Source: Desulfobotulus mexicanus (lineage in GTDB: Bacteria; Desulfobacterota; Desulfobacteria; Desulfobacterales; ASO4-4). From it: DNA of 64,000 nucleotides. Within the stretch, counting starts at the first letter, position 1; each line of letters begins with the position of its first letter. Positions 548 through 63,538 of the stretch are shown here, piece after piece. Where the stretch lies: positions 186,001-250,000 of the forward strand of contig NZ_VDMB01000001.1 in NCBI RefSeq assembly GCF_006175995.1. The letters are read 5' to 3'. The notes under the pieces were generated by a model. That model was not told the origin of the DNA. It did no database searches and saw only the letters and a program-made list of their open reading frames with translations. The position numbers and the translations under genes were made by a program.

Positions 548-899
548 CGAATTATTCAGCACTATTTTTCTTTGGCAAATTGAATATCTTTAATCTGGTG
601 CATAGACAACCGGACCATTTGTTCGTGACGCAATCTTATTCGGGATCTTCTTGCCCTGTGCGGAAGCGGCAAAAACTCCCCGCCACAGGCAGGATAAGCA
701 TTTTGATTACCATGGCAGGCTTAAGCACGCTGCCTTTGTGGCGGCTCAGACAGTTTGCCGCTTCTTTCGCACAGGCCTGCGAAGCTCTGATCCGAAACGA
801 TTGCAATGTCACTCACAAACAGCCCGATTGTCTTTTGTTAGAGCCAAGGCATTGAAATTAAAATGCAATGTTTCAGCTTGAAATGTGCTGGGCAGTTGC
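548..899 (+). repeat. Dispersed palindromic repeat, copy A (about 350 bp, MITE-like)
   Basis: Left end CGAATTATTCAGCAC matches the family terminal repeat GTAAYTRTTCAGCAC. The right end (GTGCTGGGCAGTTGC, 885-899) is its diverged inverted copy. Inside, GTGCGGAAGCGGC pairs with GCCGCTTCTTTCGCAC, CCGCCACAGGCAG pairs with CTGCCTTTGTGGCGG, and GACAACCGG pairs with CCGATTGTC, so the element folds on itself end to end. No clear target duplication remains at this copy. It separates the DUF374 gene from mlaD. Orientation here is taken as the reference (+). Confidence 0.9.
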
Positions 900-16236: not shown

Positions 16237-16640
16237 GCAATTTTTCAGCAGGTTTTATCCTGAAATTCCAAGGCTGTAATTGCAGCAGCCCTGTTCCATT
16301 GCAAGGCACCCAGGCTATTTGGAAGTGACGTTGCAATCGTTTCGGATCAGAGCTTTGTCCGGCACTCAAGCCATAAACCCAAAGCCTGCGATGAAAACAA
16401 TGGGCTTTTGCAAGCTTGAGTGCCGGAGTGCTATAAAAGCGGCAAACTGCCTGAACTGCCACAAAGGCAGCGTGTTCAAGCCTGCTATGGCAATCAAAAA
16501 GCTCATCTTGTCTGTGGCGGTGAGTTTTTGCCGCTTCCGCACAGGTCAAGAAGCTCTAAGAATAAGATTGCGTCACGAACAAATAGCCAGGGTGCCTGAC
16601 AGACATATCAGCTAATTCCAAAAACATATTAGGCTACGAC
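16237..16640 (-). repeat. Dispersed palindromic repeat, copy B (inverted), with a nested 68-bp palindrome
   Basis: This copy matches copy E in reverse orientation. Its left end GCAATTTTTCAGCA resembles the terminal repeat GTAACTGTTCAGCA; the right terminal repeat has decayed, so the right border is approximate. It keeps GTGACGTTGCAATCGTTTCGG, GCGGCAAACTG and GCCACAAAGGCAGCGTG blocks, and the outer-stem pair GGCACCCAGG with CCAGGGTGCC. Within it, 16359-16426 carries CCGGCACTCAAGC and its exact inverted copy GCTTGAGTGCCGG, replacing sequence found in the other copies. It lies between serS and thrC. Confidence 0.85.
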
Positions 16641-19685: not shown

Positions 19686-19749
19686 GGCACACAGGCTATT
19701 TGCTCGTGACGAAACGATTTCAACATCACCCACAAACAGCCTGTATGCC
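19686..19749. repeat. Dispersed repeat, copy C: outer-stem remnant (64 bp)
   Basis: GGCACACAGGC (19686-19696) pairs with GCCTGTATGCC (19739-19749) with one mismatch. The sequence between, CTATTTGCTCGTGACG then AAACGATTTCAACATCACCCACAAACA, joins the two ends of the family stem with the roughly 160-bp middle missing. It is thus an internal-deletion derivative that still folds. It lies between the convergent TPR lipoprotein and transketolase genes. Confidence 0.8.
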
Positions 19750-50348: not shown

Positions 50349-50356
50349 GGTGCACA

Positions 50357-50544
50357 GGCACAAAGGCTATTTGTTTGTGACGCAATCTTATTCGGGAGCT
50401 TCTTGCCCTGTGCTGAAGCGGTAAAAACTTATCGGCACAGACAGGCTTAACTTATGGATTGCCATAGCCGCTTCAGGTACGCTGCCTTATGTGCCGACTT
50501 TAGACAGTCTGCGGCTTCTTTCGCATACAAATAGCCCGTGTGCC
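50357..50544. repeat. Dispersed palindromic repeat, partial and diverged copy C'
   Basis: GGCACAAAGGCTATTTG (from 50357) and ATAGCCCGTGTGCC (to 50544) form the outer stem. Inside, GTGACGCAATCTTATTCGGG, GCGGTAAAAACT, GGCACAGACAGGCTTAA and GCGGCTTCTTTCGCA match the family, but the right-arm block (AGGCCTGCGAAGCTCTGATCC of copies A and D) is missing. It starts 8 bp after the panC stop and is followed by full copy D. Confidence 0.8.
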
Positions 50545-50617: not shown

Positions 50618-50984
50618 GGATAAAAGTAACTGTTCAGCACAATTTTTCTTTAGCAAATCGAATACCTTTAATCAGGTGAATAGACAACCGGACTATTTGT
50701 TCGTGACGCAATCTTATTCGGGAGCTTCTTGTTCTGTGCGGAAGCGGCAAAAACTCCCCGCCACAGGCAGGATAAGTTTTTTGATTACCATGGCAGGCTT
50801 AAGCACGCTGCCTTTGTGGCGGCTCAGACAGTTTGCCGCTTCTTTCGCACAGGCCTGCGAAGCTCTGATCCGAAACGATTACAATGTCACTCACAAACAG
50901 CCCGACTGTCTTTTGCTAGAATCAAAACCTTGAAATTAAACACAATCTTTCAGGTTAAAATGCACTGAATAATTACGGGTAAAA
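50618..50984 (+). repeat. Dispersed palindromic repeat, copy D, with target duplication
   Basis: The element (50626-50976, 351 bp) starts GTAACTGTTCAGCACA and ends TGCACTGAATAATTAC, inverted terminal repeats. It is flanked by GGATAAAA (50618-50625) and GGGTAAAA (50977-50984), a 7-of-8 direct duplication. The internal hairpin blocks are as in copy A. It lies between panC and metK. Confidence 0.92.
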
Positions 50985-61042: not shown

Positions 61043-61252
61043 ATGAGCATTGAACGTGTGGTCATGGCCTTTGCCGGAACAATGATTCTGCTTTCCCTGA
61101 TTCTTTCATGGCTGCATTCCGGATGGTGGCTGCTTTTTACCGTTTTTGTGGGAGCCAATCTGCTGCAGGCGGCCTTTACGGGTTTCTGTCCCCTTGCCAT
61201 TGTTCTGGGTAAACTGGGCATGAAGCCGGGAACGGCCTTTGAAAAAAGGTAA
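61043..61252 (+). CDS. DUF2892 inner-membrane protein (YgaP-membrane-domain-like)
   Basis: A 69-residue protein with two membrane helices (VVMAFAGTMILLSLILSWL and WWLLFTVFVGANLLQAAFTGFC) and the family ending GFCPLAIVLGKLGMKPG. An AGGAGG site precedes the ATG. The stop codon TAA (61250-61252) lies inside the GTAA start of repeat copy E, so element insertion may have replaced the original 3' end. Function unknown; the family is often near rhodanese genes. Confidence 0.88.
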   Translation: MSIERVVMAFAGTMILLSLILSWLHSGWWLLFTVFVGANLLQAAFTGFCPLAIVLGKLGMKPGTAFEKR

Positions 61253-61597
61253 CTGTTCAGCACAATTTTCCAAGTATCACAGCTGCCAGATAGATGCACA
61301 GGCACCCAAGCTTATTTGCCCGTGACGCAATCTTATTCGGGAACTTCTTGCCCTGTGCGGAAGCGGCAAAAACTCGCCGCCACAGGCAGGATGGTTTTTT
61401 TTATTACCATAGCAGGCTTATGCACGCTGCCTTTGTGGCGGCTCAGACAGTTTGCCGCTTCTTTCGCACAGGTCTGCAAAGTTCTGATCCGAAACGATTG
61501 CAACGTCACTTGCAAATAGCCAGGGTGCCTTGCAACAGTACGAAGCTGCTGCAATTACAGCCTTGGAATTTTATAATAAATGGTGCTGAACAGTTTT
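61249..61597 (+). repeat. Dispersed palindromic repeat, copy E
   Basis: Starts GTAACTGTTCAGCACA and ends GGTGCTGAACAGTTTT, inverted terminal repeats (349 bp). The outer stem pairs GGCACCC with GGGTGCC, unlike the GACAACC/GATTGTC pair of copy A, while the inner blocks (GTGCGGAAGCGGC with GCCGCTTCTTTCGCAC) are the same. No clear target duplication remains. It starts within the last codons of the DUF2892 gene and ends about 13 bp before the cobA-hemD stop. Confidence 0.9.
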
Positions 61598-61609: not shown

Positions 61610-63130
61610 TTAATCTGCTGTGCCACAAATAGCCTGTACAAGGCCGGGTATGGTGTACTCAAGGGCTTCCGTATCCACATGGAAACCAAGCTCCCTTGCC
61701 GTATCCGAAGTGATGGGACCGATGGACGCTACCTTGAGTTTCTGTATAAGGTTTCCAAAGTGTTCATCTGGTATCAGGCTTCTGAAATTTTTTACTGTTG
61801 ACGAGCTGGTAAAGGTGACCATATCCGCTCCTTCTTTTTCAAGGAGAGCGATGAGTTCTTCCGCCTGATCCTTAACAGGAAGGGTTACATAGGCTGTGAC
61901 CTCATCCATATGAGCACCCATTTCCCTCAGGCTGTCCGGCAGTACACTCCGGGCTTCGGCCGCTCTGGGCAGCAGAACCCTGACTCCGGACATTTTTTCC
62001 TTTCTGAAGGCATCCACCACGGATTCAGCGCGATAGTTTTCCGGAAGAATGTCACACCTGATGCCATAATCCAGAAGTCTTTCCGCAGTTACAGGTCCGA
62101 TGCAGGCGGTTTTTACCCGGTGCAGAGCCCGCACGTCCAAGCCTCTGTCAAAGAGTCTTTTGAAAAAATATTTTACTCCGTTTACGCTGGTAAAAACCAG
62201 CCAGTCATACTCTCCCAGCCTGTCAATGGCAGCATCCATGTCCGACATATCCTCAGGCGGCACCACCCGTATGGTGGGCATCTCAATGCAATGTGCCCCC
62301 AGCTGTGTGAGTTGAGCAATAAGATCGCTGGCCTGCTCTCTGGCACGGGTCACCAGAATACGTCTGCCAAGAAGGGGGCGTTCCTTTTCAAACCATGCAA
62401 GGGTGCTGCGCAGTTCCACCACTTCACCCACCACGATGATGGCCGGTGCCTTCAGGCCCACCCTGCGGACTTCCTCTTCAATGGTGGCAAGGGTGCCGGT
62501 TACGGTCTGCTGCTGGCTGGTGCTTCCCCAGCGGATGAGGGCCACGGGGGTTTCCGGGTTTCTGCCGTATTTCAGAAGCTGTTTTGTGATGAGGGGGAGG
62601 TTTTTCACACCCATATAGAAGACCAGGGTGCCGATGCCCCGGCTCAGTGCCTCCCAGTCAATGCGGGAGTCTTCCTTGGTGGGGTCTTCATGGCCCGTGA
62701 CAAAGGCGAGGGTTGCTGTCATTTTTCTGTGGGTCAGGGGGATACCCGCATAGGCTGAGGCTGCAATGCCCGCTGTGACTCCGGGTACTATTTCAAAGGG
62801 AATACCTTCTGCTTTGAGAACTTCTGCTTCTTCTCCCCCCCTTCCGAAGATAAAGGGATCGCCCCCCTTGAGCCGGACCACGGTACGGCCCGTGCGGGCT
62901 TTGTCCACAATGAGCTGGTTTATACCTTCCTGGGAAAGGGTGTGGTCACCGCCTTTTTTGCCCACATAAATGCATTCCGCATCCGGAGCAGCCAGGGCCA
63001 GAAGGGCCGGAGCGGCCAGATAATCATAGATGATCACTCCGGCACGGGCCATGCAGTCCCTGCCTTTGAGGGTAAAAAGGCCGGGATCTCCGGGACCTGC
63101 GCCAACTAGATAAACTTTTCCGGGTTCCAT
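61610..63130 (-). CDS. cobA-hemD: Fused uroporphyrinogen-III C-methyltransferase / uroporphyrinogen-III synthase
   Basis: A 506-residue fusion. Residues 1-245 form SUMT (KVYLVGAGPGDPGLFTLKG, VRLKGGDPFIFGRGGEEAEVL, VPGVTAGIAASAYAGIPLTHR, FYMGVKNL); residues 255-505 form HemD (ILVTRAREQASDLIAQL, WLVFTSVNGVKYFFKRL, IGPVTAERL, VTFTSSSTVKNF). It makes uroporphyrinogen III and methylates it to precorrin-2 for siroheme, cobalamin and alternative haem. The fused form is common in anaerobes of this lineage, where siroheme feeds sulfite reductase. Confidence 0.96.
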   Translation of the reverse strand: MEPGKVYLVGAGPGDPGLFTLKGRDCMARAGVIIYDYLAAPALLALAAPDAECIYVGKKGGDHTLSQEGINQLIVDKARTGRTVVRLKGGDPFIFGRGGEEAEVLKAEGIPFEIVPGVTAGIAASAYAGIPLTHRKMTATLAFVTGHEDPTKEDSRIDWEALSRGIGTLVFYMGVKNLPLITKQLLKYGRNPETPVALIRWGSTSQQQTVTGTLATIEEEVRRVGLKAPAIIVVGEVVELRSTLAWFEKERPLLGRRILVTRAREQASDLIAQLTQLGAHCIEMPTIRVVPPEDMSDMDAAIDRLGEYDWLVFTSVNGVKYFFKRLFDRGLDVRALHRVKTACIGPVTAERLLDYGIRCDILPENYRAESVVDAFRKEKMSGVRVLLPRAAEARSVLPDSLREMGAHMDEVTAYVTLPVKDQAEELIALLEKEGADMVTFTSSSTVKNFRSLIPDEHFGNLIQKLKVASIGPITSDTARELGFHVDTEALEYTIPGLVQAICGTAD

Positions 63131-63169: not shown

Positions 63170-63538
63170 TTTTGATTGTAATTATTCAGCAAATTTTATC
63201 ATGAAAAATTATTTTTTTAATTTCAGAATCTTGGTTCCAATCAAAGACAATCGGGCTGTTTGTGAGTGACATTGCAATCGTTTCGGATCAGAGCTTTGAA
63301 GGCCTGTGCGAAAGAAGCGGCAAACTGTTTGAGCCGCCACAAAGGCAGCGTGCTTAAGCCTGCCATGGTAATCAAAAAGCTTATCCTGCCAGTGGCGGGG
63401 AGTTTTTGCCGCTTCCGCACAGGGCAAGAAGCTCCCGAATAAGATTGCGTCATGAACAAATGGCTCGGTTGTCTATGCACCTGATTGAAAGTTATCGATT
63501 TGTCAAAGGAAAATTGTGCTGAACAATTACTTTTGATT
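63170..63538 (-). repeat. Dispersed palindromic repeat, copy F (inverted), with perfect 8-bp target duplication
   Basis: The element (63178-63530, 353 bp) starts GTAATTATTCAGC and ends GCTGAACAATTAC. It is flanked on both sides by TTTTGATT (63170-63177 and 63531-63538), an exact 8-bp duplication. Orientation is opposite to copies A, D and E. The outer stem pairs GACAATCGG with CGGTTGTC. It lies between the FmdB-like and cobA-hemD genes. Confidence 0.95.

What the first reader, a model, noticed from the sequence alone, without database searches (positions are those of the whole stretch)
61249..61597. Outer stem of the repeat keeps base pairing with different sequences between copies (covariation)
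Copies A, D and F carry GACAAYC...GATTGTC-type outer stems. Copies B and E carry GGCACCC...GGGTGCC, and copies C and C' carry GGCACAMAGGC...GCCYGTRTGCC. Both arms changed together, while inner arms (GTGCGGAAGCGGC/GCCGCTTCTTTCGCAC) are near-identical. Paired change across a stem more than 100 bp long means the fold itself matters (as RNA or extruded DNA), or that arms are copied from each other during replication. The deletion copies keep exactly the two outer arms.
Basis: seen in the sequence. Interest (0 to 1): 0.75.

Follow-up and report, generated by a model that had tools for sequence, protein, structure and literature searches.

The report
Mobile hairpin repeat with co-changing arms
The repeat is a small jumping DNA element, present in well over 75 copies in this sulphate-reducing bacterium (genus Desulfobotulus), whose two hairpin arms sometimes change together to stay paired; this suggests that the folded single strand, probably an RNA, matters for its spread, although most arm changes are not matched.

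Summary
Copy E (61249-61597) and its relatives fold into one very long hairpin, and the outer-stem variants are real. The repeat is a miniature inverted-repeat transposable element (MITE): terminal repeats GTAAYTGTTCAGCAC/GTGCTGAAYARTTAC, exact 8-bp target duplications and an empty site in a sister species. It has 75 core copies here, 134 in D. alkaliphilus and 12 in a third congener, and none in other genera searched. IS66-family (ISBst12-type) insertion sequences of the same order have matching ends and 8-bp duplications; this genome has no IS66 transposase.

Paired change exceeds chance. For private alleles, true partners changed together 8 times (7 restoring Watson-Crick) against 0.6 for rotated partners. 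A tree-based count gives 17-18 against 2-4 in the outer stem. But only about 6% of stem changes are paired, the window's variants mostly reflect old subfamilies, and an R-scape-style test finds no significant pair.

Mismatches that spread through the family are A.C rather than G.T on the + strand (16:1), while rare ones are balanced (16:20). That is what selection for the fold of the complementary strand would leave. Template-switch copying between arms is not excluded. A protein-coding core is rejected. No transcript was tested.

The parts
61249..61597 (+). Copy E: full-length MITE of the no-module form (349 bp)
   Evidence: 349-bp match family genome-wide; TIRs at both ends
61249..61263 (+). 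Left terminal inverted repeat GTAACTGTTCAGCAC; its TAA is also the stop codon of the upstream 69-aa gene (61043-61252)
61583..61597 (+). Right terminal inverted repeat GTGCTGAACAGTTTT (last two bases degenerate; no intact target duplication at this copy)
61300..61332 (+). Outer stem P2, 5' arm (AGGCACCC...GCAATC)
61496..61530 (+). Outer stem P2, 3' arm (GATTGCAACG...GGGTGCCT) with conserved 3-nt bulge and 2x2 internal loop
61333..61495 (+). Conserved inner hairpin (P3/P4 and apex)
   Evidence: near-invariant over the aligned copies
61454..61472 (+). Core motif GCCGCTTCTTTCGCACAGG, perfect in 70 of 75 genomic copies
61343..61343 (+). 5' member of a compensated pair private to copy E (A here, G in the family; partner T at 61482, C in the family)
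   Evidence: pair 84/223, copy L067
61482..61482 (+). 3' member of the compensated pair private to copy E
549..899 (+). Copy A, GACAACC subfamily
16237..16600 (-). Copy B, GGCACCC subfamily, carries the extra hairpin module; right end degenerate (end approximate)
16359..16426 (.). Hairpin module CCGGCACTCAAG...CTTGAGTGCCGG inside copy B
19686..19749 (+). Copy C', 64-bp deletion derivative: outer arms only
50356..50544 (+). Copy C, short copy without TIRs
50626..50976 (+). Copy D, GACAACC subfamily, TIRs and near-perfect 8-bp duplication (GGATAAAA/GGGTAAAA)
63178..63530 (-). Copy F, GACAACC subfamily, 8-bp duplication AATCAAAA

Best explanation
The repeat is a non-autonomous transposon (MITE) of the IS66 family, ISBst12 type, that spread through Desulfobotulus. 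Shown: matching terminal repeats, 8-bp target duplications, an empty site, genus restriction, and no transposase in this genome. Its body is a long imperfect hairpin with a near-invariant core. That would explain why some changes are compensated on the other arm, why wobble-type mismatches that become common are A.C on the + strand (G.U on the complement), and why single copies left in place decay mostly by one-sided changes. What the folded strand does (for example interact with the transposase, or protect the element's transcript) is not known.
For: Mobility: 131 copies with both TIRs; 49 exact 8-bp duplications and 79 with at most one mismatch, against 2 in shuffles; 9-bp matches in only 2; empty site in D. 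alkaliphilus with an 8-bp overlap. IS66/ISBst12 assignment: PF03050 elements L381, L382, L383, L385 of the same order have ends close to GTAACTATTCAG (up to two differences) and perfect 8-bp duplications; ISDge4, ISBst12 group, has ends GTGACTACTCAGCA and GTAACTGCTCAGCA and an 8-bp repeat (PMC12898284). Coordinated change: P2 18 co-changes against 3.7 (branch shuffle) and 1.9 (rotated partners, max 6), 16 of 18 Watson-Crick to Watson-Crick; replicated on 173 copies (17 vs 2.1); tree-free private alleles 8 vs 0.6, max 2 of 71 rotations, 7 of 8 Watson-Crick. Strand preference: rare mismatch states A.C:G.T 16:20, common 16:1, Fisher p 6.5e-4, same direction within each subfamily group (p 0.026 and 0.041); complement strand folds better in 173 of 173 copies, -121.0 vs -107.0 kcal/mol; RNAalifold -54.5 vs -16.0. 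Conserved 2x2 internal loop almost never turned into pairs (3/173 and 3/173), which argues against general arm copying.
Against: Only about 6% of stem changes are paired. No pair passes an R-scape-style null. No compensated pair among 43 stem differences between 10 orthologous copies (about 3 expected, so weak). Five of the seven private compensated pairs are transversion types, and some sit in copies with degraded ends, which fits template switching at least as well as stepwise selection. The A.C excess comes partly from changes shared within one subfamily and can be spread by recombination among copies; by distinct pairs it is 35 vs 23 on terminal branches. No orientation bias towards neighbouring genes and no transcript data. 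The terminal stem P1 shows no excess of co-change.
Confidence: 0.52

Rival explanations
1. Same MITE, but the paired changes come from DNA template switching (quasipalindrome correction): during replication one arm is copied from the other, so a mutation in one arm appears as its complement in the other, without selection on the fold.
For: Template switching is known to homogenise inverted-repeat arms, invert spacers and create compensatory double substitutions (PMC8604942; PMC8794818). Private doubles include transversion pairs such as GC to TA and AT to CG and occur in decayed copies. One orthologous copy pair (L116/L195) has its interior inverted in place between unmoved TIRs, as spacer inversion predicts.
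Against: Natural mismatches in the same stem (C.T at 61/252 and 62/251) became pairs in only 3 of 173 copies each, whereas about 6% of new private stem mutations are compensated; copying should erase both. It predicts no preference for A.C over G.T among mismatches that spread. No doubles among orthologous copies in place.
Confidence: 0.27
2. Subfamily history and recombination only: arms differ between old subfamilies, copies exchange segments, and the apparent co-changes are errors of the tree.
For: The window's three types are subfamilies. R-scape-style test gives nothing significant. Blocks shared between subfamilies switch between orthologues. Pair 55/258 flips repeatedly on internal branches.
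Against: Private alleles, which cannot come from another sampled subfamily, still co-change at true partners 8 times against 0.6, and nearly all doubles restore pairing.
Confidence: 0.12
3. Host-level RNA element: copies act in the messages of neighbouring genes as hairpins that change mRNA stability, as reported for ERIC and NEMIS, and are kept for that.
For: Copies sit close to neighbouring genes in intergenic DNA (median 10-50 bp except in divergent pairs) and more often between co-directional or convergent genes than divergent ones. Such roles are reported for other MITEs (PMC2229807).
Against: No orientation bias (45 vs 42), although the strand preference of spread mismatches is independent of context. 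Few orthologous filled sites were found between species among the copies compared.
Confidence: 0.07
4. The conserved core is a protein-coding gene (a frame of about 65 codons spans it) and the arms follow coding constraint.
For: Frame VTQSYSG...NVTCK is open in most copies of the commonest length.
Against: 57 of 173 copies have another core length, which shifts the frame; no clear third-position excess (305/220/332); unique synonymous changes 45 vs 49 expected; no Pfam match above cut-off; no homologue outside the genus except a chance hit with stops.
Confidence: 0.02

Closest known systems
IS66-family elements, ISBst12 type (compare ISDge4, Deinococcus geothermalis, PMC12898284), here as a MITE
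   Same: Ends GTAACTGCTCAGCA vs GTAAYTGTTCAGCAC, 8-bp duplication; IS elements of the same order with PF03050 transposase have ends close to GTAACTATTCAG and 8-bp duplications
   Different: No transposase; body is a long hairpin with no IS66 gene remnant seen; no autonomous partner with identical ends found
QMITE1 / sRNA CbsR13, Coxiella burnetii (PMC5896051)
   Same: 300-400 bp MITE, about 50 copies, transcript predicted as a very long palindrome (dG -128.5 kcal/mol)
   Different: QMITE1 has 2-3 nt direct repeats and RNA-seq evidence; here 8-bp duplications and no expression data; sequences not compared
Chunjie, Geobacter uraniireducens (as described in PMC10969869)
   Same: MITE with TIRs, DRs, many intergenic and partial copies
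   Different: 178-235 bp; not compared at sequence level here
ERIC and NEMIS/Correia elements (PMC2229807)
   Same: Intergenic palindromic MITEs whose RNA can fold
   Different: Smaller; cis effect on mRNA shown or proposed; orientation matters for ERIC, while no orientation bias is seen here

Membership tests
MITE | Terminal inverted repeats | tested here: met
   131 of 192 copies with both 15-bp TIRs at up to 3 mismatches
MITE | Target site duplication of fixed length | tested here: met
   49 exact 8-bp, 79 with at most 1 mismatch, shuffled mean 2; empty site
MITE | Short, no transposase gene, many copies | tested here: met
   about 107-551 bp; 75/134/12 core copies in three genomes; no coding signal
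MITE | Autonomous partner with the same ends | tested here: inconclusive
   No TIR-bounded element over 600 bp with a duplication of at most 1 mismatch in the 1.67 Mb fetched; not a whole-genome search
IS66 family, ISBst12 type | Ends starting GTAA with the TIR motif of the group | tested here: met
   vs 20
IS66 family, ISBst12 type | 8-bp target duplication | tested here: met
IS66 family, ISBst12 type | PF03050 transposase in the element or genome | tested here: not met
   None in G000 or G002; D. alkaliphilus has one IS with different TIRs. The repeat is therefore filed as a MITE mobilised by such a transposase, not as an IS66 element
Structured RNA family (Rfam) | Match to a curated covariance model | tested here: not met
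   No match at gathering threshold in the window, none up to E 1 in the element
Structured non-coding RNA (kind) | Significant pairwise covariation above phylogeny | tested here: inconclusive
   R-scape-style null negative; event-based and tree-free tests positive
Structured non-coding RNA (kind) | Expressed transcript | not testable with these tools
   No expression data held

The most novel reading that the evidence does not exclude
The body of this MITE is a mobile structured-RNA gene read from the complement strand, with interchangeable hairpin modules, and its fold is selected because the RNA helps the element to spread (for instance by acting with an IS66-type transposase supplied in trans).
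Probability: 0.3. Interest if true: 0.75.

Novelty: new variant of a known kind. Interest (0 to 1): 0.47.

Why it matters
Bacterial MITEs are usually treated as passive DNA with foldable transcripts. Here over two hundred copies in sister species give a natural test of whether a MITE's fold is under selection, and on which strand. The contrast between rare mismatches (balanced) and spread ones (one-strand wobble) can be applied to any palindromic MITE family. If confirmed, it would mean that some MITEs carry an RNA needed for their own spread. If instead template switching is responsible, the family is a useful natural record of that mutation process, and a warning that compensatory changes alone do not prove an RNA.

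Tried and rejected
Apparent in-place inversions of the core: of the six or so sites first seen, only L116/L195 is a clear inversion of the same copy; L065/L225, L088/L209, L113/L190 and L094/L325 are different copies at or near the same site, and L078/L173 could not be placed. Terminator targeting: weak (9 of 42 T-rich sites with a strong upstream hairpin vs 2 shuffled), not pursued. Strand mutation bias as the cause of the A.C excess: unpaired columns show no comparable per-site bias and rare mismatches are balanced. Relatives in 389 genomes of the class: only short hits of 24-54 bp at E 3e-4 to 9e-4 outside the genus, taken as chance. Viral contigs: no exact match to two core motifs. Protein-coding core rejected. 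Literature: no paper on this repeat was found among the papers held.

Full report
What is there. The finding lies between a convergent pair of genes: a 69-aa gene (61043-61252, +) and a 506-aa gene (61610-63130, -) that reads as a tetrapyrrole-pathway methyltransferase/synthase fusion (my reading of the translation, not a database result). Between them is a 349-bp repeat that folds almost end to end into one hairpin, z about -10 on shuffles as RNA or DNA. No Rfam family matches it.

It is a transposon. The genome (3.83 Mb, 69 contigs) holds 75 places with the core motif at up to three mismatches, 70 of them perfect, and about 100 terminal-repeat matches per strand. The ends are GTAAYTGTTCAGCAC and GTGCTGAAYARTTAC. 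In 131 copies with both ends, 49 have an exact 8-bp direct repeat outside them and 79 have at most one mismatch, against 2 when right flanks are shuffled; 9-bp repeats are rare, so the length is eight. One site filled here (L076) is empty in the sister species, with the flanks meeting over exactly 8 bp. The sister genome is Desulfobotulus alkaliphilus; it has 134 core copies and a third congener 12. Among 58 relatives and 389 genomes of the class only the genus has the element.

Which family. IS66 elements start with GTAA and make 8-bp duplications (general knowledge). ISDge4 of the ISBst12 group has ends GTGACTACTCAGCA and GTAACTGCTCAGCA and an 8-bp repeat (PMC12898284). In the order to which the window belongs, four PF03050 elements have ends close to GTAACTATTCAG with perfect 8-bp duplications (L381, L382, L383, L385). 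The genome itself has no PF03050 transposase, and the one IS of this kind in D. alkaliphilus has other ends. The repeat is therefore a MITE of that type, mobilised by a transposase that is now absent from this assembly or supplied from elsewhere. No autonomous partner was found in the 1.67 Mb that I fetched.

Modules. TIR-bounded copies come in discrete sizes, about 350, 410 and 470 bp plus short ones of 107-190 bp. The larger forms carry one or two copies of a hairpin module (CCGGCACTCAAG...CTTGAGTGCCGG) at two fixed places; the short forms lack the core.

Do the arms co-vary? I aligned 128 and then 173 core copies from three species. An R-scape-style null that re-places substitutions on the tree gives no significant pair anywhere, stem or not. 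That null spreads changes over conserved columns and is, I think, conservative here, so I used two further tests. Counting changes on the tree, stem P2 has 18 branches on which both partners change, against 3.7 when branches are shuffled and 1.9 (max 6) for rotated partners; [quoted passage not shown] P3 and P4 show smaller excesses and the terminal stem P1 none. With 173 copies the figures are 17 vs 2.1, 5 vs 0.5 and 4 vs 0.6, the last with a rotated maximum of 4. Without a tree, and using only alleles found in at most three copies, true partners changed together 8 times (7 Watson-Crick) against 0.6 for rotated partners, max 2 of 71 rotations. So the excess is real. It is also a minority: about 320 one-sided changes against about 20 paired ones.

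Selection or copying? Three lines of evidence bear on this. First, mismatches: on the + strand of the core, stem states A.C and G.T are about equally frequent when rare (16 vs 20) but not when common (16 vs 1; Fisher p 6.5e-4), and the same direction is seen within both subfamily groups. A.C on one strand is G.U on the other, so what spreads is what the complement strand would tolerate as RNA. The complement strand folds better in all 173 copies. In a palindrome both arms share sequence context, so a plain mutation bias should not create this, and unpaired columns show none. The caution is that some of the common states belong to one subfamily and may travel by recombination. Second, the conserved 2x2 internal loop is not erased, as arm copying would do (3 of 173 at each position). 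Third, against selection: in 10 orthologous copies with flanks roughly 83-95% identical there are 43 stem differences and no Watson-Crick double, and the private doubles include transversion pairs in degraded copies. Template switching is documented to make such changes and to invert spacers (PMC8794818; PMC8604942), and one orthologous pair (L116/L195) has its interior inverted in place. I rate selection on a one-strand fold in spreading lineages as the likeliest single cause, with copying as a serious rival or contributor.

What was excluded. The core is not a gene: 57 of 173 copies have a different core length that shifts the frame, there is no clear third-position excess, and synonymous changes are as expected by chance, with no homologue. 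There is no orientation bias towards neighbouring genes, so a host mRNA role in one orientation is unlikely as the main cause.

Known or new. MITEs whose transcripts form very long hairpins are known, notably QMITE1/CbsR13 of Coxiella (PMC5896051), and Chunjie of Geobacter uraniireducens is another MITE with many partial copies (PMC10969869). New here are the family itself, its IS66/ISBst12 assignment, the modular hairpins, and the evidence for paired and strand-biased change. Expression and mobility were not testable.

Noticed in passing
window 16359-16426; L139 301-779; pattern CTTGAGTGCCGGA in G000/G001/G002: A hairpin module of about 70 bp is inserted at two fixed places of the element, 0, 1 or 2 per copy; 65, 239 and 28 arm matches in the three genomes.
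   Followed up: partly
L116 vs L195: Same insertion site in two species, but the whole interior of the element is inverted between TIRs that stayed in place, as expected of template-switch spacer inversion or recombination between arms.
   Followed up: partly
copies in ++ vs -- gene context: Private mismatches may depend on the direction of neighbouring genes: A.C 7 and G.T 16 when the + strand is co-transcribed, 7 and 3 when the minus strand is; perhaps transcription-associated C to T change. Small numbers.
   Followed up: no
window 61249-61252: The left terminal repeat supplies the TAA stop codon of the upstream 69-aa gene.
   Followed up: no
L063, L069, L090, L110, just outside the right TIR: Several copies share a right flank resembling CAACCCACGCCRTGTTAC, apparently a second repeat adjoining the element.
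   Followed up: no
G001:C66 (L360 212-2117): An IS of 1906 bp with 25-bp inverted repeats GTAACTTCTCAATAAGTGTAGGCAT and a 537-codon PF03050 frame in D. alkaliphilus, no target duplication seen.
   Followed up: partly
L065/L225, L088/L209, L113/L190, L094/L325: Different copies of the element sit at or near the same intergenic site in two species, suggesting insertion hot spots.
   Followed up: no
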